Part shown: piece after piece, positions 13,882 to 61,053 of the stretch
Numbering within the stretch: the first letter of the stretch is position 1
How the letters are laid out: each line of letters opens with the position of its first letter
DNA from: Spirosoma luteum DSM 19990
Lineage (GTDB): Bacteria; Bacteroidota; Bacteroidia; Cytophagales; Spirosomataceae
Assembly (NCBI RefSeq): GCF_000374065.1
Contig: NZ_KB893311.1
Coordinates: 62,001-126,000, forward strand
Direction of reading: 5' to 3'
DNA length: 64,000 bases
The notes under the pieces: generated by a model
What the model was told of the DNA's origin: nothing
Database searches by the model: none
The model's input: the letters and a program-made list of their open reading frames with translations, nothing else
Made by a program: the position numbers and the translations under genes

Positions 13882-13987
13882 TACGTATGGGGTAAACGAT
13901 TGGGTAGGCTGTAAACCAGCAATAATGCTCTGTCGGATGGCAGGGCCACTTACAGTAAGGGGAGACGGCATCGTATCATAGTTTGAC

Positions 13988-24352: not shown

Positions 24353-24652
24353 GGCAGACCGCGCTTTAAACAGCGCACAGGCTGTTTCCAACGCAATTGT
24401 GACCGATAGCCGTACCGTAAATCTACGAGCAGGAGCCTGGATTTTGCCCGCTGCCTCTTCGGTACGGGGCGAACCGGGGCGGCTGAGCGACACCCTTACG
24501 GAGGTAGGACTGGGGCGGGCGACGGCTGAACAATCGACATCCATGTAACCTCTATTGGGCCAGCCCTGAAAAATTACGGCATTGCCCCGCTAACGGACCA
24601 GCGAAACGATAATGAAAAGATTAAAATGGTCCGACGTATCGGACAACGCATT
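24353..24652. other. Gap before cusA
   Basis: About 300 bases. A small repeat aaacagc/gctgttt near 24374-24393 might form a weak hairpin after the DUF3347 gene. An open stretch to the TAA at 24547-24549 (ending GRATAEQSTSM) could be a remnant but matches nothing I recognise. Confidence 0.35.
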
Positions 24653-26053: not shown

Positions 26054-26055
26054 CC

Positions 26056-28008
26056 ATGATAAAGAAATTAAAAAGCTGGTTTAGCAAGCCCATGTTCGGG
26101 CCGAAGAACTACGTCGACATACCGGACGAGGAACGTATCGCCATCATCGAGCGGTCGAGCATTCAGGTATCGCGGGGCGTGTTCTACTCCACGATTATCA
26201 TCATCACGTCGTTTCTGCCCGTTTTTCTGCTCAGCGGTCAGGAAGGCAAACTGTTTCACCCGCTGGCCTGGACCAAAACGTTTATCCTGCTGGTGGATGC
26301 GTTTCTGGTTATCACGCTGGCCCAGGTTATGCTGTCGATTTTCATGAAGGGCCGCTTCAAGGACGACCACGCCAACCCCATCAACCGCTTTCTCGAACGG
26401 GTCTATGAGCCGGTGATTCGCTGGGTCATGCGCTGGCGCAAAACGACCATTGCCATCAACCTGCTGGCCCTGGCCATAAGCATACCGATGCTGATGAGTC
26501 TGGGGTCGGAGTTCATGCCGCCCCTGGATGAGCAAAGCATCCTGTTTATGCCCGTCACCCTGCCCGACATTTCCAACGCCGAAGTAAAGCGCATTTTGCA
26601 GGTGCAGGACAAGATTATCAAGTCGGTGCCGGAGGTGAGGCAGGTGCTGGGTAAAGCGGGCCGGGCCTCCACGGCTACCGATAACTCGCCCATCAGCATG
26701 ATTGAAACGATCATTCAGCTAAAGCCCAAGTCTGAGTGGCGGGCGGGGCTGACCAAGCGCGACCTCATCAATGAACTGGATGACAAACTCCAGATTCCGG
26801 GCGTAGTCAACGGCTGGACGCAGCCCATCATCAACCGGATCAACATGCTGTCTACAGGCATCCGTACCGATGTAGGCATCAAAGTACACGGGCAATCGCT
26901 GGACAGTATCTACGCCGTATCGGAGCAGGTAAAAGCCGCCTTGCAGGGCATACCGGGTATCAAAGACCTGTACGTCGAACCCGTCACGGGCGGCAAATAC
27001 CTCACCGTCGATATTAACCGGGAGGCTTTGGGCCGCTACGGGCTGAACGTGGACGATGTAAACAACGTGGTTGAATCAGCCATTGGCGGCTCCCCCATCG
27101 GGCAAACCATCGAAGGCCGCCGGCGATTCTCCATCAACGTCCGGCTGGCGCAGGATTACCGCAACAGCGTGGAGCGCATCCGGCGCATTCCCATCGCGAC
27201 GGCCGCTTTGGGAACCATCCCGCTCTCGGCGGTGGCCACGATCCAGTTTGAGAATGGCCCGCCCATGATCTCGTCGGATAATGCGCTGCTGCGGGGCGCC
27301 GTCATGTTCAACGTCCGCGACCGCGATTTGGGTAGCACCGTGCAGGAAGCCATCGCCAAAGTCGACCAGACTCTAAAACTGCCCAACGGCTACTTTCTGG
27401 AGTGGAGCGGGCAGTACGAAAACCTGATTCGCGGGCAGCGTACCCTGCTCATCATTGCCCCGGTGGTGTTAATCGTCATTTTCCTCTCGTTGTACCTGGC
27501 CTTCGGCTCGGCTCGGGAAGCGTTTCTGAGCCTGATTACCATTCCCTTCGCCCTCATCGGCGGAGCCTACATGGTTTATTTCTACGGCGTAAACCTGTCG
27601 GTGGCTGTCGCGGTGGGCTTTATCGCGCTGTTCGGCATTGCCGTAGAAACGGGCGTGGTGATGGTTATTTACCTTAACGATGCTATGAAGCAACTCGTGG
27701 CCCGGCAGGGCAACTCACGCGACACCATCACCCGCGACGACCTGCGAGAAGCCGTAATCAATGGCGCGGCCAAACGACTCCGGCCCAAAATCATGACCGT
27801 TTCGGTGGCCCTGTTTGGCCTGGTGCCGGTGCTGTGGTCCACCGGCGTGGGGAGTGACGTGATGCTGCCCATCGTGCTGCCCATGATAGGGGGCGTTCTG
27901 ACCTCTTCGACCCATATCCTGCTGGTGACCCCCTTAATTTTCTTACTCACGAAAGAATATGAACTTCGCAAATTTGGTAAGCTCGACGTACTGGAAGCGT
28001 CGCATTGA
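26056..28008 (+). CDS. cusA: CusA-type RND pump, C-terminal half
   Basis: A 650-residue second half. It begins with the rest of the cytoplasmic linker (FGPKNYVDIPDEERIAIIER), then TM5 (GVFYSTIIIITSFLPVFLL), TM6, TM7, the second porter/docking domain and TM8-12. Two of the three methionines used for Cu(I) in CusA seem present (INMLSTGIR and GPPMISSDNA); the third site reads GGSPIG instead of GGMNIG. This favours a monovalent-metal (Cu/Ag) pump. It has its own ATG, so translation probably restarts at TAA-CC-ATG. Overlaps the next gene by 50 bases. Confidence 0.85.
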   Translation: MIKKLKSWFSKPMFGPKNYVDIPDEERIAIIERSSIQVSRGVFYSTIIIITSFLPVFLLSGQEGKLFHPLAWTKTFILLVDAFLVITLAQVMLSIFMKGRFKDDHANPINRFLERVYEPVIRWVMRWRKTTIAINLLALAISIPMLMSLGSEFMPPLDEQSILFMPVTLPDISNAEVKRILQVQDKIIKSVPEVRQVLGKAGRASTATDNSPISMIETIIQLKPKSEWRAGLTKRDLINELDDKLQIPGVVNGWTQPIINRINMLSTGIRTDVGIKVHGQSLDSIYAVSEQVKAALQGIPGIKDLYVEPVTGGKYLTVDINREALGRYGLNVDDVNNVVESAIGGSPIGQTIEGRRRFSINVRLAQDYRNSVERIRRIPIATAALGTIPLSAVATIQFENGPPMISSDNALLRGAVMFNVRDRDLGSTVQEAIAKVDQTLKLPNGYFLEWSGQYENLIRGQRTLLIIAPVVLIVIFLSLYLAFGSAREAFLSLITIPFALIGGAYMVYFYGVNLSVAVAVGFIALFGIAVETGVVMVIYLNDAMKQLVARQGNSRDTITRDDLREAVINGAAKRLRPKIMTVSVALFGLVPVLWSTGVGSDVMLPIVLPMIGGVLTSSTHILLVTPLIFLLTKEYELRKFGKLDVLEASH

Positions 28009-32101: not shown

Positions 32102-32755
32102 ATGCAAGTACTTAATCCCGGTTTGTTTCTGGTTCCTGGTATCGCCTTATTTCTGGTGATTGTAGCTTATCTGTATTTTTTCCGACGAGTTCCCAACAAG
32201 TTTGCTTACCGGAAGTATATAGTTTTGGTAGCCGGGCTGGCTTTTCTATTGAATTTTCTTTGGGAAGTTTCGCAGGGTTTCCTGTATGTAGGCTACCAGT
32301 ACGACTGGAAGCATATATCTTTCTGTGCGCTGGCCTCTGTAGCGGATGTGGTAATGGTTTTGATACTCTTCTACGGCTTTGTACTGGTCTATGGGGAGAT
32401 AGGATGGACGCAAAATTTGACACCGATTCGGGTTGCACTACTGACCCTTGCCGGAGGGGCGGGTGCCATTGTGGCTGAAAAGATTCATACGGCAAGGGGT
32501 AGCTGGTCGTATACTGATGCCATGCCTATGCTTCTATGGGTGAATGTGGGCCTGATACCCGTGCTGCAATTCACCGTGTTGCCGCTACTTGTTTTTTGTG
32601 TTATACCAATGATGCGTATGCGACAGAGGAATTCCAAATCAAAAGAAAATAGGGGGAATGCAACTTACACATGCCCCAGGCATTTGGAAGTAAAATCAGA
32701 CAAGCCAGGCAATTGCCCTAAATGCGGAATGGCTCTTGTAAAAGGAGACAATTAA
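32102..32755 (+). CDS. Multi-TM membrane protein fused to a heavy-metal-binding domain
   Basis: The only intact copy of a three-member family in this window. It has about six helices (LNPGLFLVPGIALFLVIVAY; LVAGLAFLLNFLWEVSQG; ALASVADVVMVLILFYGFVL; VALLTLAGGAGAIVAEKIH; PVLQFTVLPLLVFCVI), then, after a Lys/Arg-rich linker, an HMBD (YTCPRHLEVK...NCPKCGMAL, about residues 189-213). In that HMBD the usual CPMHP reads CPRHL. Conserved motifs GSWSYTDAMP and PVLQFT mark the family. The HMBD suggests a metal-linked role; the membrane part has no known function. Confidence 0.7.
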   Translation: MQVLNPGLFLVPGIALFLVIVAYLYFFRRVPNKFAYRKYIVLVAGLAFLLNFLWEVSQGFLYVGYQYDWKHISFCALASVADVVMVLILFYGFVLVYGEIGWTQNLTPIRVALLTLAGGAGAIVAEKIHTARGSWSYTDAMPMLLWVNVGLIPVLQFTVLPLLVFCVIPMMRMRQRNSKSKENRGNATYTCPRHLEVKSDKPGNCPKCGMALVKGDN

Positions 32756-33429: not shown

Positions 33430-33750
33430 ATGGACAATCAACAAATGCAAAGCTGTATTGAGGCCTGTGATGCCTGTGCAGCAGCATGTGAAAAATGCGC
33501 AGAAGAGTGTCAGGGAGAACAAGGCATGGAACAGTGCGAAAAACTTTGCAGGGACTGTGCTGATGCCTGCCATAAATGTGCTGATGAATGCAGAAGCATG
33601 AGCAGTACAGCTTCTCAATCAGCACAAACATGCGCCGATGCCTGCCGTGCATGTGCCGAAGAGTGTGAAAAGCACAACAACGAAATGTGCAAAAAATGCG
33701 CAGAAGAATGCAGGAAATGTGAGGCAGAATGTAGAAAGATTGCGGCTTAA
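33430..33750 (+). CDS. Four-helix-bundle copper-binding protein (Csp/DUF326 type)
   Basis: A 106-residue cytosolic protein with 21 cysteines in CxxxC / CxxC register (SCIEACDACAAACEKCAEEC and similar), the pattern of copper storage proteins, in which Cys line the core of a four-helix bundle and hold many Cu(I) ions. There is no signal peptide, so it would store or buffer cytosolic copper. AGA/AGG and AAA-rich codons differ from the flanking GC-rich genes. A hairpin follows it. Confidence 0.85.
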   Translation: MDNQQMQSCIEACDACAAACEKCAEECQGEQGMEQCEKLCRDCADACHKCADECRSMSSTASQSAQTCADACRACAEECEKHNNEMCKKCAEECRKCEAECRKIAA

Positions 33751-33754: not shown

Positions 33755-33799
33755 AACAAACAGGCTATTAGAGAATGATAAACTGATAGCCTGTTTGTT
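33755..33799 (+). terminator. Hairpin after the Cys-rich protein gene
   Basis: Perfect 14-base arms (33755-33768 and 33786-33799) with a 17-base loop, starting four bases after the stop codon; followed by an A/T stretch without a clean T-run. Confidence 0.6.
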
Positions 33800-33890
33800 A
33801 AATTTATCAGCCATGAAAATAGTATTACAAAGCAATACAGATAGTGTTCTTTACAAGTAAGACAAATTCAAATTGCATAAATTGTTACCT

Positions 33891-34250
33891 ATGCCAAACA
33901 CTTATTACCTTATTTTATTGGCAATGTTACTTTGTATTACAGCTTTAGCTGGTTGTTTGTACCTGCTTAAAAAAAGCATGGGTATAATAATAAAGGAACC
34001 AGCCAAAGATGTACCTGTAGAAGCGGGTAGCCTACCACAAAAACCGGCATGGGTAAGGTTTCATGTGCATTATTACGGTTTTGCACTACTGTTCCTTGCC
34101 TTTGATATGGAAATGGCATTTATGTATCCCTGGGCGGTTGTTTATAAAGAGTTGGGCATAACGGCACTTATTGATATGGGTGTTTTCCTAATGATACTTT
34201 TTCTCGGACTGTTGTATACCTGGAGCCAGGGTGGTTTAAAAAGACAATAA
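33891..34250 (+). CDS. nuoA: NuoA-like subunit of a complex I-related membrane complex
   Basis: A 119-residue protein with three helices. The NuoA signature is clear: RFHVHYYGFALLFLAFDMEMAFMYPWAVVYKELG, including the acidic pair DMEM. It starts at ATG 33891, the first possible start giving a membrane-protein N-terminus. NuoA links the peripheral and membrane arms in complex I. First of eight tightly packed genes; two bases separate it from the fusion gene. Confidence 0.88.
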   Translation: MPNTYYLILLAMLLCITALAGCLYLLKKSMGIIIKEPAKDVPVEAGSLPQKPAWVRFHVHYYGFALLFLAFDMEMAFMYPWAVVYKELGITALIDMGVFLMILFLGLLYTWSQGGLKRQ

Positions 34251-34252
34251 CT

Positions 34253-36397
34253 ATGGAAAGTCAATCAATCAAGTACGGAAGCAGAAAAGGAAAACAAACT
34301 GCCTTTAAGCAACTGTTGTCAGGAGTTGCCAGTAAGTCACTGTGGGTATTTCCTGTTCCGGGTCTGAACGGTTTGTTAGCCAAAGGCTTTAATCCACATC
34401 AAAAAGGAGTAAACATTGCTACGACACCAAAGCATGCAAATGTATTGCTCGTTACTTCACCGCTGCCTGAAAAACTAACAACGTATGCAGCGAATGCATA
34501 TGCTCAAATGCCTCGTCCCCGTTTGCTGGTTTTTGTAGGCATTAGTTCCATTGATCCGCTACCGTCTCCCCACTTTGTTTTGTCTACTGATGAAATTAAT
34601 CTTCTTTCTCAAAAAATTTCTTTTTCCCATGCGTGGTCTGAAGAGGCTGTGGCTTATGAGCTTCCTGATACCGATGACGGCAAGAGCGTTTATACCTGCC
34701 CCATGCACCCAGAGGTTCAAAGTGACCAGCCAGGGAACTGCCCCAAATGCGGGATGGCACTGGTGAAAAAGGACGATGAGGTGAAGTCAATAGATAAGTT
34801 CGGCAACAAAGGGGAAAAGCAGCAGCATGAACACATGTACGCTGAAGTAAAGGAAGATAAAGACATTTTCACCTGTCCTATGCATCCTGAAATACAAAGT
34901 GATAAGCCCGGCAATTGCCCGATATGTGGAATGACACTGGTGAAAAAGCACCATGAAGAACAGCAAGCAGGTATGACTAAAAATGAAGTTGATGGACACC
35001 ATCTTCATGAACACAGGCGGGGAGTCATGAACCTTCGTGAACCTGAAAGCAAGCAATCCCTAAATAAAGAAGTGGCAGATGATAAAAATGTTTACACATG
35101 CCCTATGCATCCTGAAGTGCAAAGTAATGAAGCGGGTCAATGCCCTAAGTGTGGAATGAGGTTGGTGAAAAAGGAAGAGGAAAAAGGAAACGAGTTGAAA
35201 GGCGAAGAAGAAAATAAAAGCCAACACCACAATCAAGATACGCAAAATCATCACGGGCATCCAATTGAAAACGATGTGGATACTCACGACATGAACGTGG
35301 ATGAACAGAAAACGCAGGATGTGCAAGGGCATGATAAGAGTAAACATGAAGGGCATGAGGATATGGCAGGCATGAGTGGTAGGGAGGGTGGCTTTATGTC
35401 AATGGTGCAAATGACGAAGGATATGCCCCGAAGTGAAGATGGCCTGGCAATGGAGATGAGCGATGTTTTTTTTGGTCCGTTTCATCCCGGGTTACCGGGA
35501 GGGCTGCTGGTAAAAATGAAGCTGGATGGTGATACTGTCATGAAGGCAACGATTGAAAGGGATATAGCATCGCAGCATCTGTTACGTCCTTTTCCCAAAT
35601 TACTTTCGCAGCTTCCGCAGCATCTTTCCCAACTTAATCCTTTACTGCATTCAACTTATCACCTGTTGGTTTATAAAGCACTTTCTAATATGGGTGATAG
35701 CAATGATTTGGTGGATGAAGTTGCCTTTCTTGAAAAAGACCGCATAGGCAGCCACCTGAATTGGTTGAGCCTTTTTAGTAGAACGATTGGCGACCGTGAA
35801 TTACACTACCAGGCATCAAAACTATGCTATGAATATCAAACAGGAAAAGCAGCCAAAGCAAATATTTTAATGCTTACGGGTAACGCAGAGAAGACGCTTT
35901 ATCTCAAAAAGAGGCTAAATAATATTGGAATAATACCGGAACATCTTCTTCAATCAGTTACCGGACCAATTGCAAGAGCGGCAGGTATGGAGAAAGATAT
36001 GCGCCAGTCTATGCCTGCTTACCAACACAAAAATTTTAAACCAATAATGCTTCATGAAAATAATGCCTGGGGGCAGTTGCAGGTAAGGCTTGCAGAAATA
36101 GATCAAAGCGTAAAACTGCTTGGCGATGAAAATTTAAATAAGAAAATCATTCTTCCTGAAATCAATAATAGTGATTTGCCTGGGGAACAAAAAGGGGAAG
36201 CCGCGGTGGAAGCGCCCAATGGAAAATTACAATTGTCAATAGAAATAAATGATGGACAGGTGAAAAGCATTGCCATAGAAGCGGCTTCAAAAGTACTTGC
36301 CGACGTGGTGCCACAGATTACCAAAGCACAGGAACTTTCGAATGCATTGGTAAGCATTGCTTCATTGGATATTTCGCCCTGGGAAATGGATGCGTAA
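34253..36397 (+). CDS. NuoB-like / three HMBD / NuoD-like fusion protein without Fe-S ligands
   Basis: 714 residues. Residues 1-135 align by pattern with NuoB (KHANVLLVTSPLPEKLTTYA, QMPRPRLLVFVG) but contain no cysteine, so the N2 cluster ligands (CC, SC, CPPR) are all gone. Three heavy-metal-binding domains follow at about 147-172, 206-231 and 281-306 (YTCPMHPEVQ, CPKCGM etc.), joined by Glu/Lys/His linkers, then a His-rich stretch (325-370). From about 381 the rest matches NuoD: FFGPFHPGLPGGLLVKMKLDG, DRIGSHLNWLSLFSR, GPIARAAGMEKDMRQSMPAY, LDISPWEMDA. The quinone-site HGV motif and the GYLHRG/EK block are lost. Position between nuoA and nuoH equals B-C-D in complex I. Confidence 0.85.
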   Translation: MESQSIKYGSRKGKQTAFKQLLSGVASKSLWVFPVPGLNGLLAKGFNPHQKGVNIATTPKHANVLLVTSPLPEKLTTYAANAYAQMPRPRLLVFVGISSIDPLPSPHFVLSTDEINLLSQKISFSHAWSEEAVAYELPDTDDGKSVYTCPMHPEVQSDQPGNCPKCGMALVKKDDEVKSIDKFGNKGEKQQHEHMYAEVKEDKDIFTCPMHPEIQSDKPGNCPICGMTLVKKHHEEQQAGMTKNEVDGHHLHEHRRGVMNLREPESKQSLNKEVADDKNVYTCPMHPEVQSNEAGQCPKCGMRLVKKEEEKGNELKGEEENKSQHHNQDTQNHHGHPIENDVDTHDMNVDEQKTQDVQGHDKSKHEGHEDMAGMSGREGGFMSMVQMTKDMPRSEDGLAMEMSDVFFGPFHPGLPGGLLVKMKLDGDTVMKATIERDIASQHLLRPFPKLLSQLPQHLSQLNPLLHSTYHLLVYKALSNMGDSNDLVDEVAFLEKDRIGSHLNWLSLFSRTIGDRELHYQASKLCYEYQTGKAAKANILMLTGNAEKTLYLKKRLNNIGIIPEHLLQSVTGPIARAAGMEKDMRQSMPAYQHKNFKPIMLHENNAWGQLQVRLAEIDQSVKLLGDENLNKKIILPEINNSDLPGEQKGEAAVEAPNGKLQLSIEINDGQVKSIAIEAASKVLADVVPQITKAQELSNALVSIASLDISPWEMDA

Positions 36398-36447
36398 TTC
36401 CGGTCAGTTATATTGGGTTTAGGATAAAAAATTAAAGGAAAGGAACT

Positions 36448-37335
36448 ATGTGGATACTACTAATTGGTTTGTATCTCTTTTCTGTTTACTTCTTATCCGT
36501 TCTGGAACGGCGGATGGTATATAAAAAATGGAACTTTGCGGCTCCCTTTTCCACACTGGCATTTTTGCTGGTACAGGAAGATGTAAAGCCCCATCAACGG
36601 GATAGGATTTTTTATGAAACGGCGCCTGTTTTATTTATTGCCGCGGCATTAATGGCTGTTGGCGTTTTGCCCTTTGCCAAAGGCTTTATCATCACCGGAC
36701 TTTCAACAGGCGCTTTATTTATTAATGCCGCTTTTGCTTATATCATGGTAGCAATAGTGATGGCTGGATGGGCGCCAAACGGCGTATATAGCATGATTGG
36801 GGGGTGGCGATTTCTGGCACAGTTAATTGCCTACTCAATGCCCATTGTGATGGCGATTACCGCTACGGTAATGAGAGCGGAATCTATGAGCTTAGTGAAT
36901 ATTGTAGCTTCTCAAACACATCTATGGAATATCATTTACCAACCAGTTGGCTTTGTGCTTTTTTACGTTGCCGCGATGGCGCTTGCTTTCCTGCCGCCGT
37001 TTGATTTACCCCTGGCACCCGGCGAACTGGCAGAAGGAGTTTGGGCCGAATTTACAGGGGTCAAGTTACTGCTCTTCCGGCTTGGCAGGTTGATGCTGAT
37101 TTTATCGCTTTCGCTGGCAGTAACGGTTTTGTTTTTAGGTGGATGGGAAGGGCCCCTGTTGCCTGGGTTTGCATGGACCTTTATAAAAACAATTCTGGTC
37201 GCTGCTTCATTTTTCCTTTGCGGACAATATGTACCGCGTGTTCAACACGATGATCTGCTGGAATGGAGTTGGAAGCTACTGACACCGTTGGCTTTATTTA
37301 ATATTCTTTGGGTAGGTATTTTATTATTGTTATGA
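36448..37335 (+). CDS. nuoH: NuoH-like membrane subunit, degenerate quinone region
   Basis: A 295-residue, eight-helix protein with the ERR of TM1 (SVLERRMVYKKW), FLLVQEDVKP, the AQLIAYSMP segment and LPPFDLPLAPGELAEGVWAE, all in NuoH order. Changes are notable: the RxGPNxxG loop that lines the quinone entry is replaced by KKWNFAAPFS, AESEL reads APGEL, and the conserved AEY region reads LGRLML. It therefore probably anchors the fusion protein without reducing quinone. Its stop overlaps nuoJ (ATGA). Confidence 0.83.
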   Translation: MWILLIGLYLFSVYFLSVLERRMVYKKWNFAAPFSTLAFLLVQEDVKPHQRDRIFYETAPVLFIAAALMAVGVLPFAKGFIITGLSTGALFINAAFAYIMVAIVMAGWAPNGVYSMIGGWRFLAQLIAYSMPIVMAITATVMRAESMSLVNIVASQTHLWNIIYQPVGFVLFYVAAMALAFLPPFDLPLAPGELAEGVWAEFTGVKLLLFRLGRLMLILSLSLAVTVLFLGGWEGPLLPGFAWTFIKTILVAASFFLCGQYVPRVQHDDLLEWSWKLLTPLALFNILWVGILLLL

Positions 37336-37847
37336 ACATGGAACGAATAATTTTTTTGCTCTTGTTTGGCTCAACCGCTATCTGGTTTGCCTGGAGAGTG
37401 TTTATGACTAAATCCATGATACGTTCAGCTCTTTCTTTGCTGGCTTCAATGGTGGCAATAGGCATACTGTTTCTTGTGATGCAGGCTGAGTTTTTGGGTG
37501 TTTTGCACATTATGATGATGGCTACTGAAATGACGATTATGGCAATCTTTATGATGATGTTTATGATGGACCCCGGTGGTATGGGCGATATGGATATGAG
37601 CCATCAAAAGAAGTATTCCAGTGTGTTTGCTTTCCTTTCCGGTGCCAGTTATGCAGCCGCCATTCTTTTTACCCAATGGCCAATAACGGCAGATGCAGTG
37701 CCCGCACCTGCACAGCAAAACCACGACCTCGGTATCGAGCTAATGCAACGCTCCATGATGATTTTTGAAACGGCGGGCGTATCCATTTTAGTGGCGATGA
37801 TTGCAGCAACGGCAACGGCACTCTCATTTAATTCAGTAAACAAATGA
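37332..37847 (+). CDS. nuoJ: NuoJ-like subunit with Met-rich helix
   Basis: A 171-residue protein of the NuoJ fold (AEFLGVLHIMMMATEMTIMA corresponds to the AEFLAAVQVLVYAGAIMVLF region). In this helix and the following loop (residues 61-89) there are 13 methionines, ending MFMMDPGGMGDMDMS, and the usual YAGAI with its bulge-forming Tyr is replaced. Thioether-rich sequence of this kind is known from Cu(I)/Ag(I) ligands. It starts at ATG 37332, overlapping nuoH by four bases, and overlaps nuoK likewise. Confidence 0.8.
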   Translation: MNMERIIFLLLFGSTAIWFAWRVFMTKSMIRSALSLLASMVAIGILFLVMQAEFLGVLHIMMMATEMTIMAIFMMMFMMDPGGMGDMDMSHQKKYSSVFAFLSGASYAAAILFTQWPITADAVPAPAQQNHDLGIELMQRSMMIFETAGVSILVAMIAATATALSFNSVNK

Positions 37848-38155
37848 TGACGGAACTAATTATTGTACTGGTGATCGCGGCAGTTTTATTTGGGATTGGT
37901 GTTTACGGCGCGCTCAGTCAAACCAACCTGGTTATGATAATGATGGGTATAGAGCTGATGCTGGGAGCCGCCATGCTTAATCTGGTAGCCTTTTGGTTTT
38001 ACCTGCATCCTAAAACATTTTCGCTGCAAATGTTTGTGCTGGTAGTCATGACGGTAATGGCGCTTGAAGCGGTAGTGGGGTTTGGTGTGGCAACGCAACG
38101 GTTTCGCTCCAAAGGGTCGGTAGAAGTGGAAGAGGCAGCAGATTTAAAAGAGTAA
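37844..38155 (+). CDS. nuoK: NuoK-like membrane subunit
   Basis: A 103-residue, three-helix protein closely matching NuoK. Both buried glutamates of the central proton pathway are kept: the one in MGIELMLGAA (TM2) and the one in MALEAVVGFGV (TM3). It overlaps nuoJ by four bases, so the E-channel part of the membrane arm looks functional. Confidence 0.85.
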   Translation: MMTELIIVLVIAAVLFGIGVYGALSQTNLVMIMMGIELMLGAAMLNLVAFWFYLHPKTFSLQMFVLVVMTVMALEAVVGFGVATQRFRSKGSVEVEEAADLKE

Positions 38156-38185
38156 ATCAAGGAGATTAACATACTATACCAAAGA

Positions 38186-40075
38186 ATGCAAATACTGTTA
38201 CTTATTATTATACTCGCACCTTTTACGGCATCCCTGCTTACGTATATGCTGCGCATCCGGAACGGTCGGTTGCCTATCATTGCGGCATCTTTATCACTCG
38301 CTGCTGCTTTGTTCTTGCTGAATTCCGGGGGTAAAAGTCTTTCAGCAAATTATTTTTATCCCGGCTTGCCCAACCAACCCTTTCAATTACAGGCAACCAA
38401 TTCAGCGTTGGTGCTTACTACCGTAATTTTATTGGTAGCGCTATCCATTTTTATCTATTCACCGCAATACATGCGAAAAGAAAATGGCAAAAACTGGTTT
38501 TGGGGAGGTATCTCTTTGTTTCTGTCTGCTATGCTGCTGTTGGTATTTGCCGGCGATTGGGTGCTGTTCATTACCGCCTGGGAAATCATGGGTTTTGCTT
38601 CCTTCCTCCTGATAGCTACCTGGTATGAAAAGCCGGAAGCGCAACAGGGTGCAGTAAAGGCGTTCATGCTCACCCGGTTTACCGATATGGGTTTGTATCT
38701 CGGCATTTTTGTTGTTATACTCACTTCGGGAAACGCGCAGGTATTTCACGGTACAGCTTCACAAATCTCAACTTTGGGCGGCCTCTTTTTTTTACTTGCT
38801 GTGATGGGTAAATCTGCCCAGGTTCCATTTCAGAGCTGGCTGTCTGGTGCCATGGCAGGTCCCACTCCTGTTTCCGCATTGCTGCATTCCGCCACAATGG
38901 TAGCTGCTGGTGCGGTATTACTTTTCAGAATTTATCCACTGCTTAACGAAGATGTTTTGTTAGTTACCGGCTTGGTTGGGGGCACTACCATATTGGTTAC
39001 CGGGCTCACCGCTATCGCTTCCCGGGATGTAAAACAACTGCTCGCAGCCTCCACTTCCAGCCAGCTTGGGTTTATGCTATTGGCGATTGGCGCAGGCAGC
39101 CCCGGAGCAGCTTTTGCCCATTGGATAGCGCATGCCTTTATGAAAAGCAGTTTGTTTCTGGGTGCCGGTATTTTTCAGCATGAATACAACAGCACTTCTT
39201 TTCAAAAACTTGAGGGCACAGGAAAAAACAGGAAGGCAACCATGCTCGCCTTTTTCATTGCAGCCATCGCTTTATCCGGCATCCCGCCCCTGTTTGGTTA
39301 TTGGTCTAAAGATGGGATACTGGCAGCAACGTCACAGTCATCCCATACCGCTTTATTTTTTTCAGTGGCTATTGCCGGTGCATTTCTAACGGCGGTTTAT
39401 ATGGGCAAAGCGGTAAAAAGATTGTGGCAGGGGACGCCCAAAAACGAGGAAGGACCGGAGCCGAAACAAATGCTCACTGCCATTTCTATCCTTATCGCAT
39501 TTGTCATGGCGGGGGGCTTCTTCCTGGAGTACGTAGTAACGATTGCCGGTTACGGACTGCCATCAGACAGTTTAAGTAAGGTTGTTGGTATTGTTACAGC
39601 CATTGCAGGATTGGCAGCAGGCTGGCTTTTAAAAGAAAGTTGGTTTACTGGAAAGGTATGGAATACGGTAAGAGATAATTTTTCTATCGCCGGCGGTTAC
39701 CAGTATCTGGTGGTTAAACCCACGTTGGCATTCGCCGGATATGTTTATAAAGTAGAATTGCTGATGCAGTATTTTATTCAAAAAACAGGAACTTCCTTTC
39801 TACAAATTGCCCATGCTGCTTTTAACACGGATACGCTTTTGAATAACCTTATGAACGGGATGGGCACTGCCGGTATAGCCTTAAGTAACGGCACGAAATC
39901 TTTTGAAGAAGAGGCAGTGGAAGCGGGCGTTTACGGTATATCTGCCACTGTAAAGGAGAGCGGAAGATGGGGTAGAAAATTACAATCCGGTTTGGTACAC
40001 AAAGAACTGGTGATAACCGTTGCAGGTATGCTGGTTTTAATTTTTTTACTAATAGCCCTTATCAAGTATGCCTGA
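38186..40075 (+). CDS. nuoL: NuoL-like antiporter subunit
   Basis: A 629-residue antiporter-like subunit. Conserved ionisable residues are present: Glu133 in AWEIMGF (TM5), Lys219 in MGKSAQVPFQSW (TM7), the GAMAGPTPVSALLHSATMVA block, and the Lys-Asp pair in GYWSKDGIL (TM12). It therefore probably still moves protons or Na+. The C-terminal section (after about residue 480) has further helices, as the lateral helix HL would. Overlaps nuoM by eight bases. Confidence 0.88.
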   Translation: MQILLLIIILAPFTASLLTYMLRIRNGRLPIIAASLSLAAALFLLNSGGKSLSANYFYPGLPNQPFQLQATNSALVLTTVILLVALSIFIYSPQYMRKENGKNWFWGGISLFLSAMLLLVFAGDWVLFITAWEIMGFASFLLIATWYEKPEAQQGAVKAFMLTRFTDMGLYLGIFVVILTSGNAQVFHGTASQISTLGGLFFLLAVMGKSAQVPFQSWLSGAMAGPTPVSALLHSATMVAAGAVLLFRIYPLLNEDVLLVTGLVGGTTILVTGLTAIASRDVKQLLAASTSSQLGFMLLAIGAGSPGAAFAHWIAHAFMKSSLFLGAGIFQHEYNSTSFQKLEGTGKNRKATMLAFFIAAIALSGIPPLFGYWSKDGILAATSQSSHTALFFSVAIAGAFLTAVYMGKAVKRLWQGTPKNEEGPEPKQMLTAISILIAFVMAGGFFLEYVVTIAGYGLPSDSLSKVVGIVTAIAGLAAGWLLKESWFTGKVWNTVRDNFSIAGGYQYLVVKPTLAFAGYVYKVELLMQYFIQKTGTSFLQIAHAAFNTDTLLNNLMNGMGTAGIALSNGTKSFEEEAVEAGVYGISATVKESGRWGRKLQSGLVHKELVITVAGMLVLIFLLIALIKYA

Positions 40076-41546
40076 TAACTTTCCCTTTCTCACGATTATT
40101 TTGCTGTTGCCATTGGCAGGCATGCTGCTGATACTGTTGTTGAAATCAACCTATCCGAAAGCAGCTTACCCAGTTAGCGTTGTTATTTCGGGAGTTGCGT
40201 TATTGCTGACCATCTGGTTTGGCGCATCGGGCAGGGTGGGCAATTTCGCTCATATCGAAGAAGCAAGCTGGATCCCTTCCCTAGGTGCGGCATACCGTCT
40301 TGGATTGGATGGCATCAGCTATCCGCTGGTATTGCTTTCCACTATTCTGTTCTTTTCGGTTTTTATTTTTTCTTCAAAAATTGAAAAAGAAATACCACGT
40401 TATTTTTCGTTGCTGCTATTGTTGCAAGCTGCCTGCCTTGGCGTGTTTCTGTCGCTTGATTTATTGCTGTTCTACGTTTTTTTTGAAATAACACTGGTGG
40501 GCATGTATTTTTTAATTGCCGGTTGGGGGCACGAGAATCGCAAGAAAGCCGCCATCACCTTTTTTATATATACACTTATCGGTAGCCTGGTGCTGTTGCT
40601 GGCACTGCTTTCCCTTTACCTGAATACGACACCGCATACGTTTGATATGCGGGTATTAATGGAGAAACGTGCTTTAACCGGAACAATTGCTGCCTTTACC
40701 TTTTGGGGATTGTTCATCGCTTTTGCCATTAAAACGCCCTTATTTCCTTTCCATACCTGGCTTCCGTTGGCGCATACCGAAGCTCCGGCTACCGGCAGTG
40801 CTATACTTGCAGGCATCTTATTGAAATTAGGCACGTATGGCTTCATCCGTTTTGCTTTACAAATGATGCCCGAAACATTCCGGCAGTATGCCACCTATGT
40901 GATGGTTATTGCCGTGATTTCGGCAGTATACGGCGCACTGGTTGCAATGGCGCAAACCGATATAAAGCGAATGGTGGCTTATACCAGTGTAAACCACATG
41001 GGCTACCTGGTATTTGGTGTGGCTGTTGCAGCCGTTGCTCCGCCAACTCAAGGCGTGCAGGCGTTAGATGGCGCTGTACTTCAAATGTTCAGTCATGGTA
41101 TTGTTACCGGCTGTTTGTTTTTGCTGATTGGCAGCCTACAGGAGCGATTAACAACAAGAGAGATGCCCGCCATTCAGGGTTTATTAAGAACATTTCCCTT
41201 GCTAAGCGCACTTTTTATTATCGCTTCTTTTGCTTCGCTTGGCTTACCCGGACTGGCGCATTTTCCGGCAGAGTTTCAAATTTTTCTAGGGGGATACAGT
41301 GTCTATCCGGTTGCTGTTGGTGTTATGCTCATTGGTCTTGTTATCACTGCGGGTCTTTATTTGCGGGCCATTCAAATGTCGTTTATGGGCACGCCAGATA
41401 AAGCAATTTTTACAATACAAACCGATTTGAAAAGTTATGAGCAATGGGCTATCGTGCCCCTGATTATTTTAATTATTGCGGTTGGTTTATTTCCAAATAT
41501 TGTTTTATCCATTATTCACCAAACAACCAAACTGTTCGGCTTATGA
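40068..41546 (+). CDS. nuoM: NuoM-like antiporter subunit
   Basis: A 492-residue antiporter subunit with key residues kept: Glu140 in FFEITLVGMYFLI, Lys222 in AIKTPLFPFHTW, LLKLGTYGF (TM8 Lys) and the C-terminal Glu in LPGLAHFPAEFQIF. The HTEAPATGSAILAG block is canonical. It appears to be the best preserved proton-pumping subunit of this set. The stop overlaps nuoN (ATGA). Confidence 0.9.
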   Translation: MPDNFPFLTIILLLPLAGMLLILLLKSTYPKAAYPVSVVISGVALLLTIWFGASGRVGNFAHIEEASWIPSLGAAYRLGLDGISYPLVLLSTILFFSVFIFSSKIEKEIPRYFSLLLLLQAACLGVFLSLDLLLFYVFFEITLVGMYFLIAGWGHENRKKAAITFFIYTLIGSLVLLLALLSLYLNTTPHTFDMRVLMEKRALTGTIAAFTFWGLFIAFAIKTPLFPFHTWLPLAHTEAPATGSAILAGILLKLGTYGFIRFALQMMPETFRQYATYVMVIAVISAVYGALVAMAQTDIKRMVAYTSVNHMGYLVFGVAVAAVAPPTQGVQALDGAVLQMFSHGIVTGCLFLLIGSLQERLTTREMPAIQGLLRTFPLLSALFIIASFASLGLPGLAHFPAEFQIFLGGYSVYPVAVGVMLIGLVITAGLYLRAIQMSFMGTPDKAIFTIQTDLKSYEQWAIVPLIILIIAVGLFPNIVLSIIHQTTKLFGL

Positions 41547-42907
41547 ATATGGGAAAAGATATTGTATTGATTTTACCACAAATTATTGTCTTGCTTACAG
41601 CCGCAATGGCCTTGGTTTTTACCATGTTGTTCAAGCATAAAAATAGTATGTGGACTGTTATCACCGGTATGCTGGCTGCTGTTGTTATCACTGCCCTAAA
41701 ACTTAATCAGTACGCTACTGCATTTTCCGGCACCTTTAGAATAGACGCATTGAGTCAATGGGCAGTACTTATTCTTTGCCCCGCTGTGGCGCTTAGTTGT
41801 TTGTTGGCAAGAGATGAATTAAAAAACACGCCCAGGGAAGGTACTGTTTACGTCCTGCTGGCATTTTCTGTTTTAGGTTCTTTATTGCTGGCTGGAAGTG
41901 GTGATATCATGTTCATTGTGCTGGGATTATTAATTAGCAGTTTGAGTGGGTTTGCATTAGTTGCTTATCCTAAAACGGATGCGGCTACCGAAGGCGCTTT
42001 AAAATATTTTGTCTATGGCTCGGTTACGGGTGGCATTATGGTATTCGGGTTAACCTATTGGGTAGGTATGACCGGCAGCACGTTGCTATCCTCTCTTCAA
42101 AGTTTAAACAACTCGCCTTATATTTTAGTGATTGGGTTTGTTGCGCTGCTTGCAGGGATTGGATACGCTGCTTCCTTATTTCCCTTCCATTTCTGGACAC
42201 CCGATGCTTTTGAAGGCGCTCCGGTTTCTGTTGCTGCCCATCTTTCTGTGGTTCCAAAAATAGGGGCTTTGTTTGCACTCGCCCAGGTAATGAAAAACAT
42301 TCCGGATAGCGAAAGCATATCGTTACTTGTGGGCATCATTGCAGTGCTCTCCATGACCTTTGGGAATGTTGTTGCCCTATGGCAAAAGAATGTGGTTCGG
42401 TTGCTTGCTTACTCAACCGTTGCCCAGGCGGGGTATTTTCTATTGGCTATCACAGTATTTAAAAACAGCCGTTTGGCAGCACCTGCTTTAATCATTTTTG
42501 CATTGGCATACGCAGCCATGAATATTGGTTCATTTGCCATTGTACAATGGGCAGGCAAAAGCCTAGATGACTTTAAAGGATTGGCGCAGAAACATCCCAT
42601 AACATCAATTGACATGACAGTTTTATTGTTATCTCTTGTAGGTGTTCCGCCGTTAGCTGGTTTCGCGGGAAAGTTTTTATTATTCGGTGCAGCGATGAAC
42701 AATGGCTACGCGTGGCTGGCTATTGCCGCTGTCCTCAACAGTGTTATTTCTCTGGCAGTGTATCTGCGCATCATTGTTCCTATGTATGCTAAAGAAACGT
42801 TGGTAGAAAAAGAAAGGTCTCCAATTATTGTTGTTTGGAAAATCTGTGTTGTAGTAACCGTAGTGGCAGGTATAGGAGTACAATGGTTACTAAAGATAAT
42901 AGGATGA
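41543..42907 (+). CDS. nuoN: NuoN-like antiporter subunit with altered proton residues
   Basis: A 454-residue protein with clear NuoN blocks (FPFHFWTPDAFEGAPVSVAA; GVPPLAGFAGKFLLF). Two residues of the proton path differ: the TM5 Glu of LGLELL is replaced (VLGLLISSL, about residue 130), and the TM7 Lys before PFH is Ala (GYAASLFPFH). The TM8 Lys (VVPKIG) and TM12 Lys (AGKFLL) remain. It may no longer translocate protons. Last gene of the operon; a 600-base gap follows. Confidence 0.85.
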   Translation: MNMGKDIVLILPQIIVLLTAAMALVFTMLFKHKNSMWTVITGMLAAVVITALKLNQYATAFSGTFRIDALSQWAVLILCPAVALSCLLARDELKNTPREGTVYVLLAFSVLGSLLLAGSGDIMFIVLGLLISSLSGFALVAYPKTDAATEGALKYFVYGSVTGGIMVFGLTYWVGMTGSTLLSSLQSLNNSPYILVIGFVALLAGIGYAASLFPFHFWTPDAFEGAPVSVAAHLSVVPKIGALFALAQVMKNIPDSESISLLVGIIAVLSMTFGNVVALWQKNVVRLLAYSTVAQAGYFLLAITVFKNSRLAAPALIIFALAYAAMNIGSFAIVQWAGKSLDDFKGLAQKHPITSIDMTVLLLSLVGVPPLAGFAGKFLLFGAAMNNGYAWLAIAAVLNSVISLAVYLRIIVPMYAKETLVEKERSPIIVVWKICVVVTVVAGIGVQWLLKIIG

Positions 42908-48201: not shown

Positions 48202-51200
48202 TCAGGGCTGGCCGAGCAGGTATTCAATGTAAAGCACCGACTGGTTGTACTGGTTGAGCAGATCGAGGTAACTGGCCCGGATGGTCAGCGATTGTTGCAG
48301 GGCCAGCGAAAATTCCACGTACCCAATGTCGCCCCCCCCGAAGGCCTTGCGGGCGTTGTCCAGAATTAGCCGGGCCTGCGCCAGGCCGTTCTGCTCATAA
48401 TACGCCAGCGCCGTGCGGTACTGTTCGTACTGCTGAAAGGCTAGTGTGCCCTGTTGCTGCAAAGCCCGTCGCTGGGTCGCCAGTTCGGTTTGGGCGATCT
48501 GTTCACCCAACCGGGCGGCCTCGATCCGGGCCTTTTGTGGTTTGGCCAGCAGTGGCACCAGCACCCCAATCTGCCCGCTCACGAACCGATGTCCAGGACC
48601 GTAGTAGGTCTCGTTGCCATCATAGATTTGCGTCCCGATGATGGTCTGGGTGGACAATCCCACGATGAACTCGGGTTTTAGCCGGGCCTGCTCCACGCGA
48701 CGGCTTTGTTGGGCCACCACGATCTGCTGCCGAAGTTGCGCCAGCAGCGGATTGTTGGTCGTACCACTGCTATCCACGACTACGCTCAATTTCCGTTTGG
48801 TGAGTGGGCCGGGTGCCACCTCCAGTTCATCCGTACTGTAGAGCGCGGTTTGAAGCCGGGTACGGGCCGCAGCCAGGTTAGCCGTATTCTGGGCGAGCCG
48901 AACCAGTCCGTCGGCCCGTTGGCTTTCGGCGGTAGCCTTTTCGAGTGAGCCGGTTTCGCCCACCCGGAAGCGCAAATTAGCCGCCTGCACAAACTCGGCC
49001 AGGACGGAGTCCTGCTGCCGAAGCAGCCCTTCCCGTTCGTGCCAGTACTGCACGGCATAATACGCCGATTTGACATCGTACTGCACCTCATTGCGGCTCA
49101 CGCCCACGGCCATTTCCCGACCCTGAATGGTGGCGTCGGCCAAATCGGCCTGCCGACGCAACAGGGCCGGATTGGGCAAAATCTGGCTGATGGTCAGGCC
49201 ATTGTCAAATTTTCGGCTATTGAACTGACCCAGTGTACTGCTGATGGTGGTGCGGCCATAGTCGTAGGCACTCTGGCGCAGGGCCCGCTGCTGGTTCACC
49301 TGAAGGCCGCCAATTTGGAGCCGGGCGTTACGGGTAGCCGCTTCCTGAAGGGCCTGATCCAGACCAACGGCCCGGATGGCGGGGGATTGGGCATTAACTC
49401 CTAAAGCGGCCAGCACCAAAGTGGCAATCATGACCAAACGGTTCGTTATTCCCGACGGTATCGGTTTTTTAGGGTCGATCCGCTCCAGTCCACGCTCGAA
49501 ATAGGTGTACAGGATGGGCAGCACGAACAGCGTCAGTAGGGTGGCCGTAATCAAGCCGCCGATGACCACTGTCGCCAGTGGCTTCTGCACTTCGGCCCCG
49601 CCGGAGTTTGATAGGGCCATCGGGATAAAACCCAGCGAGGCAACCAGTGCAGTCATAATCACGGGCCTCAACCGCACCTGGGTACCCCGCCGGATAATCT
49701 CTCTAAAGTCGGTTAGTCCTTCCTCGTGCCGCAGCCGGTTGAATTCTGCAATCAGCACGATACCGTTGAGTACGGCCACGCCGAAGAGGGCGATGAAGCC
49801 CACCCCCGCCGAAATACTGAACGGCATTCCCCGCAGCAGCAGGGCAAACACGCCCCCGATAGCCGCCATCGGAATGGCAGTGAAGATCAAAAAACTCTGG
49901 CGAACCGAGTGGAAGGTAAAAAATAGCAGGGCGAAAATCAGGGCCAGTGAGCCTGGTACGGCAATGGCCAGCCGCCGTTTGGCTTCGACTAAGTTCTCGA
50001 ACTGCCCGCCATAGGTGATCGAATAGCCGGGTGGCAACTTGATTTGCCGGGCTACTTTGCCCTGCAACTCGGTGATGATACTTTCCACGTCCCGCCCGCG
50101 CACGTTGAAGCCCAGCGTAATGCGCCGACGGGTATTGTCGCGCTGGATCTGGTTGGGTGCCTGTTCCATGGTCACGTCGGCCAGTTGTGTTAACGGAATC
50201 TGCTGGCCAGTGGCCGTTGCCACGTAGAGGGTACGCACATCGTCGATACTCCGGCGTTTATCAGCCGATAACCGTACCACCAGATCGAACCGCCGTTCGC
50301 CCTCGTATACCTGACCGGTCGATTGCCCGGCGAAGGCCGTGTTGATCGTGCGGTTCACATCGGCGACGTTCAGGCCGTATTTAGCGATCTGATCGCGGTT
50401 GAGTTTGACTAAGATTTGGGTCAAGCCTTCGACCTGCTCGACGTAGAGGTCTTTGGCTCCGTCGATGCCCCCAATCAGGTTACCCACCTTCTCGGCCTGC
50501 CGGGTCAGTTCGCCCAGGTCTTCGCCGTAGATTTTCAGGGCTACGTCCTGGCGGGCACCGGTCATCAGTTCGTTGAATCGCATTTGCACCGGCTGCTGGA
50601 AGCCAAAAGCTACGCCCGGGATGACGGACAGGGCTTCGGCCATTTTTTCGGCTAGTTTCTCGCGACTACCGGCACTGGTCCATTCGGACTTTGGCTTGAG
50701 AATAATCATCAAATCGGAGGCTTCGATGGGCATGGGGTCGGTTGGAATCTCGCCGGAACCGCTTTTACCCACCACCTGCTCCACTTCGGGAAACTGTTTC
50801 ATTAAAATCCGTTGGGCTTTGGTGGTCGCGTCGGCCGATTCGCTCAGCGAACTACCCGTCAGGACGCGGGTTTCCACGGCAAAATCGCCCTCGTCCAGCG
50901 TTGGTAAAAACTCACCACCCATGCGCGTGAACAGAAATACGCTGATGGCTAATAACGAAACCGCCACCGCCAGAATTAGTATCCGGAACCGCAACGCCCG
51001 CATAATCAGCGGCTCATAGCCCCGGTGCAGCCAGGCCATGAACCGGTCGGACAACGTATTCTTATGCCGGATGGTTTTGCTGAGTACCAGCGAGGAGACC
51101 ATGGGCACGTAGGTCAGCGACAGAATAAATGCCCCCAGAATAGCAAAGCCCACCGTCAGGGCCATCGGGCGGAACATCTTCCCCTCCACCCCCGATAGGG

Positions 51201-52608: not shown

Positions 52609-52637
52609 CGCTACATCAATTGAAGAGTAAGACAAAG

Positions 52638-60851: not shown

Positions 60852-60948
60852 GGTCTTATAGGTTTTGTTTCTGTTGCTTAACCAACGCCTGAAGGTTTGG
60901 TTGTAAAAGATTAGGGTATGGACATCCTGTTTTACCCCGATCCCCCAA

Positions 60949-61053
60949 CTAACGTCGTCGGTTTCGCCAGCGATGACCAACTAGCACAATGCAGAAAATC
61001 AGGACACCGATAAAAAAGGAATACATGCCGTAAGACCAATAAATGCTTTCCAT
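60949..61053 (-). CDS. Small membrane protein, 34 residues
   Basis: From the ATG at 61053 it reads MESIYWSYGMYSFFIGVLIF and then CIVLVGHRWRNRRR, one helix and a basic end. It is upstream of the Csp-dps pair on the same strand and might belong to it. It looks like a genuine single-helix peptide. Confidence 0.45.
   Translation of the reverse strand: MESIYWSYGMYSFFIGVLIFCIVLVGHRWRNRRR

What the first reader, a model, noticed from the sequence alone, without database searches (positions are those of the whole stretch)
33891..42907. Complex I-derived operon with a NuoB/NuoD-like fusion that carries three heavy-metal-binding domains and no Fe-S ligands
Gene order nuoA-[B/D]-H-J-K-L-M-N copies complex I, but C, E, F, G and I are missing. 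The fusion has no cysteine in its NuoB-like part, and its NuoD-like part has lost the HGV and LHRG/EK motifs, so NADH oxidation and quinone reduction by the usual route look impossible. Three HMBDs and a His-rich linker sit exactly where the redox core would be. I infer a machine in which Cu(I)/Ag(I) binding is coupled to ion movement through the NuoL/M-type antiporters. Related Ehr complexes are known to lack catalytic ligands, but I know of none with HMBDs. It might alternatively be a plain ion antiporter.
Basis: partly seen in the sequence, partly recalled or inferred. Interest (0 to 1): 0.96.

Follow-up and report, generated by a model that had tools for sequence, protein, structure and literature searches.

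The report
Redox-less complex I for copper
Bacteria of several phyla carry a relative of respiratory complex I that lacks the ligands for its iron-sulfur and quinone chemistry but has metal-binding domains and a strictly conserved row of methionines along one predicted membrane helix, so it likely moves copper or silver ions across the membrane using the proton gradient, which would be a new job for complex I.

Summary
Window 33891-42907 encodes NuoA, a NuoB/NuoD-like fusion with three HMBDs, then NuoH, J, K, L, M, N; C, E, F, G and I are absent, and canonical nuo genes lie elsewhere in the genome. It is not a one-off: the fusion gene was found in 80 kept loci from Bacteroidota, Balneolota, Chloroflexota, Actinomycetota, Deinococcota and Pseudomonadota, and on 11 plasmid records, and it is enriched beside copper genes (12 of 20 loci, against 0 of 20 canonical nuo and 2 of 20 random loci of the same genomes). 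None of 113-117 aligned relatives keeps an N2 cysteine or any of three quinone-binding residues. New here: the E-channel is rebuilt. NuoJ TM3 carries nine methionines, each in 82 of 82 loci (seven never Met in 30 canonical NuoJ of such genomes), plus an invariant new Glu and an M-x-M-x-H loop. Conserved Met gains concentrate in A/H/J/K (27 of 693 columns), not L/M/N (8 of 1481). NuoL and NuoM keep their proton-channel residues. Best explanation (inferred, 0.5): a proton-coupled Cu(I)/Ag(I) translocator with an HMBD/His antenna. A 2021 Marinobacter paper saw one such cassette, co-expressed with copper genes, without these features.

The parts
33891..34250 (+). NuoA homologue; TM2 D78-M79-E80-M81-xx-M84 (numbered from the ORF start at 33873)
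   Evidence: PF00507 5e-27; Met at 79, 81, 84 in 73 of 73 family loci; 0, 0 and 1 of 21 canonical
34253..36397 (+). NuoB/[metal insert]/NuoD fusion, 714 aa
34253..34684 (+). NuoB-like part, no cysteine; aligned loops that hold three of the N2 Cys are gaps
   Evidence: hhalign 96.5% to canonical NuoB over residues 48-134; Cys in 0 of 113 at all four columns
34688..34771 (+). HMBD 1
   Evidence: PF19335
34868..34948 (+). HMBD 2
   Evidence: PF19335
35090..35173 (+). HMBD 3
   Evidence: PF19335
35180..35392 (+). His/Met-rich linker, residues 310-380, low-confidence in the model (likely disordered)
   Evidence: pLDDT under 50; insert H+M+C mean 20.8% vs 4.9% in flanks over 118 relatives
35393..36394 (+). 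NuoD-like part; quinone residues H38, Y87, D139 (Nqo4 numbering, recalled) replaced
36448..37335 (+). NuoH homologue; E157 (E. coli numbering, recalled) is Ser, quinone-loop Glu largely lost, Lys206, Arg211, Arg214
37308..37847 (+). NuoJ homologue, 12.8% Met
   Evidence: PF00499 1e-20
37494..37568 (+). NuoJ TM3 (residues 63-87) with the methionine ladder M69/70/71/75/78/82/84/86/87 and Glu74
   Evidence: 82 of 82 loci; helix in the model
37569..37604 (+). NuoJ TM3-TM4 loop DPGG...M-D-M-S/T-H
   Evidence: M95, M97, H99 in 82 of 82 loci
37844..38155 (+). NuoK homologue, both E-channel Glu kept, Met around them
38186..40075 (+). NuoL homologue, the eight channel residues checked are kept
40068..41546 (+). 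NuoM homologue, the seven channel residues checked are kept
41543..42907 (+). NuoN homologue; TM5 Glu lost; TM7 Lys is Ala here

Best explanation
This operon encodes a complex I derivative without the usual ligands for redox chemistry that likely works as a proton-coupled exporter of soft metal ions, probably Cu(I) or Ag(I). Proposed steps: (1) HMBDs and His/Met linkers of the NuoB/D fusion, on the cytoplasmic side, catch the metal [domains shown; binding and side inferred]. (2) The metal is handed to the invariant M-x-M-x-H loop of NuoJ at the junction of fusion and membrane arm [residues shown; role inferred]. (3) It passes along the Met face of NuoJ TM3, with Met of NuoK, NuoA and NuoH beside the E-channel acids, toward the periplasm [residues shown; path inferred]. 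(4) Protons returning through NuoL/NuoM, whose channel residues are kept, drive it by running the complex I coupling in reverse: charge changes in the E-channel and movement of TM3 gate the metal step [inferred]. In the cell it would act beside CopA and Cus in metal resistance.
For: Met ladder: positions 69, 70, 71, 75, 78, 82, 84, 86, 87, 95 and 97 are Met in 82 of 82 NuoJ (loci; one record counted twice, L030/L086); 30 canonical NuoJ from such genomes have Tyr at 71 and Ala at 74 in 30 of 30. Positions 71, 75, 78, 82, 86 lie within 80 degrees of one helix face. NuoJ Met 11.0% [9.5-14.0] vs 4.2% [1.7-5.7]; NuoK 9.2% [6.8-11.7] vs 4.4% [3.0-6.9], touching at the edge; NuoL, M, N are below canonical (2.8 vs 4.2, 3.8 vs 5.0, 3.4 vs 5.2), so it is no composition bias. 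Conserved Met gains 27 of 693 columns in A/H/J/K vs 8 of 1481 in L/M/N, Fisher 4e-8; L, I, V, F, A show no such skew. 14 of 17 Met-dominated NuoJ columns are invariant (98% or more) against 14 of 74 for L/I/V/A. The insert is richer in H+M+C than the flanks in 118 proteins (minimum 14.9% vs maximum 9.9%). Copper genes 12 of 20 vs 0 of 20 and 2 of 20. A Marinobacter cassette of this kind is co-expressed with copper genes (PMC8233155, passages; same family inferred from gene content). For CusA, of the proton-driven RND exporters, movement of Cu(I) along a methionine ladder has been suggested (PMC7558416, passages). TM3 of ND6/NuoJ is described as the gate of the water wire that couples complex I (PMC7613608, passages).
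Against: No metal binding or transport was measured. No multimer model was available, so a continuous path through A/H/J/K is not shown; the E-channel of complex I is described as dry on both sides. No copper-panel gene near 23 of 40 long loci, 13 of them Gammaproteobacteria, among these both Marinobacter loci L055 and L061. HMBDs could hold Zn. One member, L034, has a short insert with little His or Met (10.4%). NuoN has lost its TM5 Glu (68 of 69) and, in the window and 6 of 69 relatives, its TM7 Lys, so the route from proton flow to the E-channel is altered. NuoH and NuoA as whole subunits are not clearly Met-enriched (3.3 vs 3.9%, 4.5 vs 3.8%). Six of 84 loci gave no single signature ORF and L022 and L032 read as two ORFs; draft errors or real breaks, not resolved. 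The NuoJ model is of modest confidence (pLDDT 71, pTM 0.49). Members descend from one ancestor, so 82 sequences are not 82 independent events. Direction (export) rests on context only.
Confidence: 0.5

Rival explanations
1. Metal-gated proton (or cation/proton) antiporter: metal bound by the insert and by NuoJ opens or closes an ion path through NuoL/M/N, protecting pH or ion balance under metal stress, but metal itself does not cross.
For: NuoL and NuoM channel residues kept; Mrp antiporters are non-redox relatives (PMC7419157, search listings with start of abstract only); single loci have envelope genes nearby (fatty-acid cis/trans isomerase in L049; cyclopropane-fatty-acid synthase in L087; patatin in several).
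Against: A sensor would hardly need invariant Met along a whole predicted transmembrane helix.
Confidence: 0.22
2. Copper-redox pump: Cu(I) held in HMBD/Met sites is oxidised to Cu(II), the electron going to quinone or another acceptor, and the energy pumps protons (the guess printed for Marinobacter).
For: Proposed in PMC8233155 (passages); His/Met sites suit copper.
Against: No N2 cysteine in 0 of 113 and none of three quinone-coordinating residues in 117 aligned relatives; six conserved acids of NuoH are lost or rare; no electron-carrier gene inside the operon of the window or of five annotated plasmids, although a cytochrome c and an azurin-like gene lie about 4-5 kb away in L090.
Confidence: 0.12
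3. Same machine run for uptake or insertion: it imports or inserts copper for cuproenzymes, or moves another metal such as Zn, Ni or Co.
For: HMBD and His tracts are not metal-specific; some members have almost pure His tracts.
Against: A row of thioether ligands favours Cu(I)/Ag(I) (established chemistry); where metal genes are near they are mostly of copper detoxification: P1B-ATPase, MCO, CopB, CsoR, Csp.
Confidence: 0.1
4. Decayed complex I or oxidant sink: non-catalytic remnant, or methionines that scavenge oxidants.
For: The redox ligands tested are gone; a few draft loci have broken ORFs.
Against: Strict conservation across phyla of NuoJ Met and of NuoL/M channel residues; an oxidant sink would not fix Met positions on one helix face.
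Confidence: 0.05

Closest known systems
Respiratory complex I (NDH-1), membrane arm and NuoB/NuoD
   Same: Gene order A-B/D-H-J-K-L-M-N, fold of the NuoD part, proton-channel residues of NuoL and NuoM, both NuoK Glu, NuoA Asp/Glu
   Different: No C, E, F, G, I; no N2 cysteines; no quinone residues; metal insert between B and D; Met/Glu/Arg-rebuilt E-channel
Complex I-like 'NuoADHJKL' cassette in the Marinobacter atlanticus copper operon (PMC8233155; passages read)
   Same: Gene content, the name Ni,Fe-hydrogenase III large subunit, copper context and co-expression; Marinobacter contigs L055 and L061 are members here. The sequences ACP86_11540-11570 were not compared
   Different: The passages report nuoM/N missing and mention no fusion, HMBD or methionine pattern ('heavy metal' occurs 0 times); copper redox is proposed as energy source; L055 and L061 show no copper-panel gene within their flanks
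[quoted passage not shown] passages read)
   Same: Group-4-type large subunit without catalytic metal ligands beside Mrp-like subunits
   Different: Those are suspected to couple redox reactions of a partner to ion movement; no partner here, and NuoA and NuoJ of complex I type are present
Mrp cation/proton antiporters
   Same: Non-redox use of NuoL/M/N-type subunits
   Different: Here NuoA, H and a NuoB/D fusion are kept; the Mrp subunits E, F, G (recalled) were not searched for
CusA heavy-metal RND exporter (PMC7558416; passages read)
   Same: Works-like: proton-driven family, suggested methionine ladder for Cu(I)/Ag(I); CusB-type partners with HMBD in this window
   Different: Unrelated protein family (RND), not a complex I derivative

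Membership tests
Respiratory complex I (NADH:quinone oxidoreductase) | Genes C, E, F, G, I with the complex | tested here: not met
   tblastn of own canonical B, C, E, F, G, I: 0 of 84 loci at E 1e-8 (loci 3-32 kb long, many cut)
Respiratory complex I (NADH:quinone oxidoreductase) | Four Cys ligands of cluster N2 in NuoB | tested here: not met
   Cys in 0 of 113 aligned relatives at each of the four columns; no NuoB part of 118 has more than 3 Cys
Respiratory complex I (NADH:quinone oxidoreductase) | Quinone-coordinating His38, Tyr87, Asp139 of NuoD (numbering recalled) | tested here: not met
   0 of 117 at each position: P 116/A 1; P 111/R 4/L 2; Q 75/L 27/T 13/V 1/M 1
Respiratory complex I (NADH:quinone oxidoreductase) | Membrane subunits A, H, J, K, L, M, N with proton-channel residues | tested here: met
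   all seven over Pfam cut-off; NuoL and NuoM residues kept; but NuoN TM5 Glu lost in 68 of 69 and NuoH acids changed
Ehr / group 4 [NiFe]-hydrogenase relatives | Large subunit without Ni-Fe Cys ligands next to antiporter-like subunits | tested here: met
   NuoD part of the window has 1 Cys; L/M/N present
Ehr / group 4 [NiFe]-hydrogenase relatives | Fe-S small subunit and an electron-donating partner (recalled as typical) | tested here: not met
   no N2 Cys; no partner oxidoreductase gene in the operon of the window or of five annotated plasmids
Mrp cation/proton antiporter | MrpA-G gene set | not tested
   Mrp-specific subunits were not searched for; NuoA, H, B/D present instead
HMBD metal-binding domain proteins (PF19335) | HMBD over the Pfam cut-off | tested here: met
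   three domains in the window, 5e-45; 119 of 120 listed relatives by a loose pattern (that list is ranked by likeness to this HMBD-bearing query), but none in 12 members found by the NuoD part with the insert in view
Proton-coupled metal transporter (function) | Measured metal transport coupled to protons | not testable with these tools
   needs the bench tests listed

The most novel reading that the evidence does not exclude
A new class of membrane transporter: complex I with its redox arm replaced by a metal-catching arm and its E-channel turned into a methionine-lined conduit, so that proton flow through NuoL/M exports Cu(I)/Ag(I). It occurs in at least six phyla and rides on plasmids in two of them.
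Probability: 0.45. Interest if true: 0.97.

Novelty: new variant of a known kind. Interest (0 to 1): 0.9.

Why it matters
How complex I couples quinone chemistry to distant proton channels is a long-standing question. Here the proton channels and the coupling helix are kept, while the ligands for redox chemistry are gone and the E-channel is rebuilt with methionines. If it moves metal, the coupling machinery can run without electrons, and the E-channel/TM3 gate becomes testable with a soft-metal probe. It would also be a widespread copper/silver system, also plasmid-borne, that annotation hides under names such as NADH-quinone oxidoreductase or Ni,Fe-hydrogenase III.

Tried and rejected
Ordinary complex I with subunits elsewhere: rejected, because 35 of 36 genomes with the fusion also hold a separate NuoD match with E at or below 4e-58 (the exception is G427), and the NuoH tree puts all 83 family tips in one clade, support 0.985, apart from 18 canonical ones. 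The NuoK tree is less clean: the smallest clade holding all 82 family tips spans 111 of 112 tips, and a clade of 81 tips round the window has support 0.64.

HMBD as the defining feature: rejected; 12 members found by the NuoD part have none with the insert in view (L006, L007, L008, L009, L014, L021, L034, L039, L040, L053, L071, L073). Most have His- or His/Met-rich tracts instead; L034 has only a short one (H+M+C 10.4%).

Copper-gene panel: the queries came from the window and five annotated plasmids, so those five loci (5 of 5 positive) and L030 (same record as L086) were left out of the 79-locus count (29 of 79 with a panel gene); the matched 20 include L030; without it 11 of 19, Fisher 0.002 against the random stretches. 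The random stretches lie about 40-50 kb from canonical nuoD. The canonical control stretches hold less flank, as the nuo cluster is longer. My first neighbour clustering was spoiled by antisense ORFs in GC-rich contigs and was replaced by the panel. Recurrent DUF6629, patatin and sigma-factor neighbours in Rhodobacterales were not explained.

One search lists 6 of 395 genomes of the host's phylum; two (G200, G267) match weakly over part of the profile (E 1e-21) and may be ordinary NuoD, so I count 4 including the window's own.

Fold check: the VIA-align rows test the NuoD part (373-714) only; the NuoB part rests on sequence profiles. Canonical controls for NuoL are few (7 sequences). The 82 NuoJ loci count one record twice (L030 and L086). 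The count of 6049 hits is mostly not this family, as HMBDs alone match, and was not used.

Prior print: searches turned up only PMC8233155 for such a cassette, and I saw no mention of the fusion with HMBD or of the methionine ladder; most hits were seen as listings only; subscription papers and preprints are not held. PMC12361115 (passages) surveys complex I gene fusions (CD, BCD) and mentions neither heavy metal nor copper.
Full report

2. Surroundings. The window is a metal island: two multicopper oxidases, CusA-type RND genes, two CusB-type fusion proteins with HMBDs, two Csp-like DUF326 proteins, and HAD-domain pieces that look like a broken metal ATPase. The operon was found in none of the 20 same-genus genomes listed and in 1 of 200 genomes of the family examined, the window's own, so it is most likely a recent arrival.

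3. A widespread family. A scan of named genomes with the NuoD part alone (so that HMBDs could not drive it) returned 111 related stretches, of which the best 80 became loci, from Bacteroidota, Fodinibius and Gracilimonas, Chloroflexi, Rubrobacter and other Actinomycetota, Trueperaceae, Alpha- and Gammaproteobacteria (some phylum names recalled from genus names). Eleven plasmid records carry the fusion (H1-H11); five were read, from Rubrobacter, Paracoccus, Nitratireductor, Sulfitobacter and Roseovarius, two of them typed conjugative. In 84 loci (80 plus four plasmid stretches, one of them the same record as L030) NuoH was found in 83, NuoJ in 80, NuoK in 79, NuoL in 77, NuoA and NuoM in 71 each, NuoN in 69, many contigs being cut; canonical NuoB, C, E, F, G, I in none. 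35 of 36 such genomes have another, canonical-type NuoD. Six of the 84 loci gave no single ORF with the signature, and L022 and L032 read as two ORFs; this was not resolved.

4. No ligands for redox chemistry. Cys stands in 0 of 113 aligned relatives at each of the four N2 columns. At the three quinone-binding positions of NuoD none of 117 keeps the complex I residue. NuoH has lost the E-channel Glu (A 57, S 27 of 84; E in 18 of 18 canonical), three Glu of the quinone-loop region are acidic in under 20%, and Arg stands where canonical has Glu (82 of 82).

5. The insert looks metal-binding. In 118 proteins the insert has 20.8% His+Met+Cys (minimum 14.9%) against 4.9% in the flanks; that list is ranked by likeness to this HMBD-bearing query. 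In 54 genome loci with the insert in view the median is 22.5%, the lowest L034 with 10.4%. HMBD number runs from 0 to 11. Twelve members with the insert in view have no HMBD, most of them a His- or His/Met-rich tract in the same place.

6. The methionine ladder (new). In the family NuoJ TM3 reads Q-I-M-M-M-A-T-E-M-s-i-M-A-I-F-M-V-M-f-M-M-D-P-G-G, followed by M-D-M-T-H. Met at 69, 70, 71, 75, 78, 82, 84, 86, 87, 95, 97 and His99 are present in 82 of 82 loci. In 30 canonical NuoJ, 84 is Met in all, 95 in one, 87 has no counterpart in the alignment, and the others are never Met; Tyr71 and Ala74 of canonical NuoJ (30 of 30 each) are Met and Glu here. Positions 71, 75, 78, 82, 86 share one helix face. 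The helix is predicted at 63-87; the loop after it has 2.3 K+R but also 2.2 D+E per sequence, the loop before it no K or R, which suits a cytoplasmic side for the M-x-M-x-H loop. NuoK gains Met beside both of its kept Glu, NuoA at 79, 81, 84 beside its kept Asp and Glu, NuoH at 131 beside the lost Glu. Gains of conserved Met: 27 of 693 comparable columns in A/H/J/K against 8 of 1481 in L/M/N (P 4e-8); Leu, Ile, Val, Phe, Ala are not skewed, Gly and Arg slightly (P 0.007, 0.03). A few of these family gains are not Met in the window itself (for example NuoJ 54, NuoK 76 and 95). L, M, N have less Met than canonical; A and H as whole subunits hardly differ. Nearly all loci were chosen by the NuoD part, so the NuoJ pattern is independent of the search. 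The family is one clade in the NuoH tree, so conservation, not repeated origin, is the argument.

7. Proton channels. Of eight residues checked in NuoL, five are invariant in the family and three differ in 1, 1 and 5 (Asp to Glu) loci; the seven checked in NuoM are invariant. NuoN keeps TM8 and TM12 Lys in 69 of 69, has lost TM5 Glu in 68 of 69 and keeps TM7 Lys in 63 of 69; the window and its Bacteroidota/Balneolota kin have Ala or Thr there. NuoK keeps both acids (E37 81 of 81; E75 as Glu 77, Asp 4).

8. Link to copper. Copper-panel genes lie within about 10 kb of 12 of 20 fusion loci, against 0 of 20 canonical nuoD loci and 2 of 20 random stretches of the same 20 genomes (Fisher 4.5e-5 and 0.002). 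Over all 40 loci of 17 kb or more it is 17; of the 23 without, 13 are Gammaproteobacteria, the Marinobacter loci L055 and L061 among them. One published transcriptome in Marinobacter atlanticus shows a cassette of this kind inside the copper operon and up together with it (PMC8233155, passages); that it is the same family is inferred from gene content.

9. Mechanism. In complex I the E-channel subunits couple the quinone site to the antiporter-like subunits and TM3 of ND6/NuoJ rotates as the gate (PMC7613608, passages). CusA belongs to the proton-driven exporters and is suggested to move Cu(I) along a methionine ladder (PMC7558416, passages). The simplest reading of a metal-catching arm, a Met-lined gate helix and kept proton channels is a proton-coupled Cu(I)/Ag(I) exporter. 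Shown: genes, domains, residues, conservation, context. Inferred: metal binding, the path, coupling and direction. A metal-gated antiporter and a copper-redox pump stay open.

10. Novelty. The parts belong to the complex I superfamily, hence 'new variant of a known kind'; a metal-transporting complex I would be a new class. In print I found only the Marinobacter cassette, without fusion, HMBD or ladder in the passages seen; subscription papers were not searchable.

Noticed in passing
window 24626-28008: CusA-type RND gene lies as two ORFs in different frames (N-half 24626-26053, C-half 26056-28008).
   Followed up: partly
window 14996-16029 (-): Two HAD-domain fragments in different frames that look like a metal P-type ATPase without its N-terminal part: a broken gene.
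   Followed up: partly
window 48202-52635 (-): 1477-aa natural fusion of an RND pump with an outer-membrane efflux protein (CusA-CusC type).
   Followed up: partly
window 3502-6051 (+) and 10948-13971 (-): Two multicopper oxidases with long Met/His-rich inserts and a C-terminal stretch beyond the oxidase domains.
   Followed up: partly
window 32102-32755 (+): Hydrophobic protein ending in a single HMBD, upstream of the nuo-like operon; no Pfam family besides HMBD.
   Followed up: no
window 33430-33750 (+) and 60498-60980 (-): Two Cys-rich DUF326 (Csp1-like copper-storage) proteins; the first directly precedes the operon, with an inverted repeat (seen by eye) at about 33755-33801 between them.
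   Followed up: partly
L024, L035, L042, L045, L062, L066, L074, L087, L089, L090: DUF6629 protein, patatin-like phospholipase and, less often, a sigma-70 factor recur beside the operon in Rhodobacterales.
   Followed up: no
L022 6836-8020 (-), L031 17523-18683 (+), L032 17492-18676 (-): About 390-aa hydrophobic protein recurs beside the operon in Gammaproteobacteria; the L031 copy has no Pfam match at E 1e-4.
   Followed up: partly
G403, G412, G430: Some genomes appear to carry two copies of the fusion operon.
   Followed up: no
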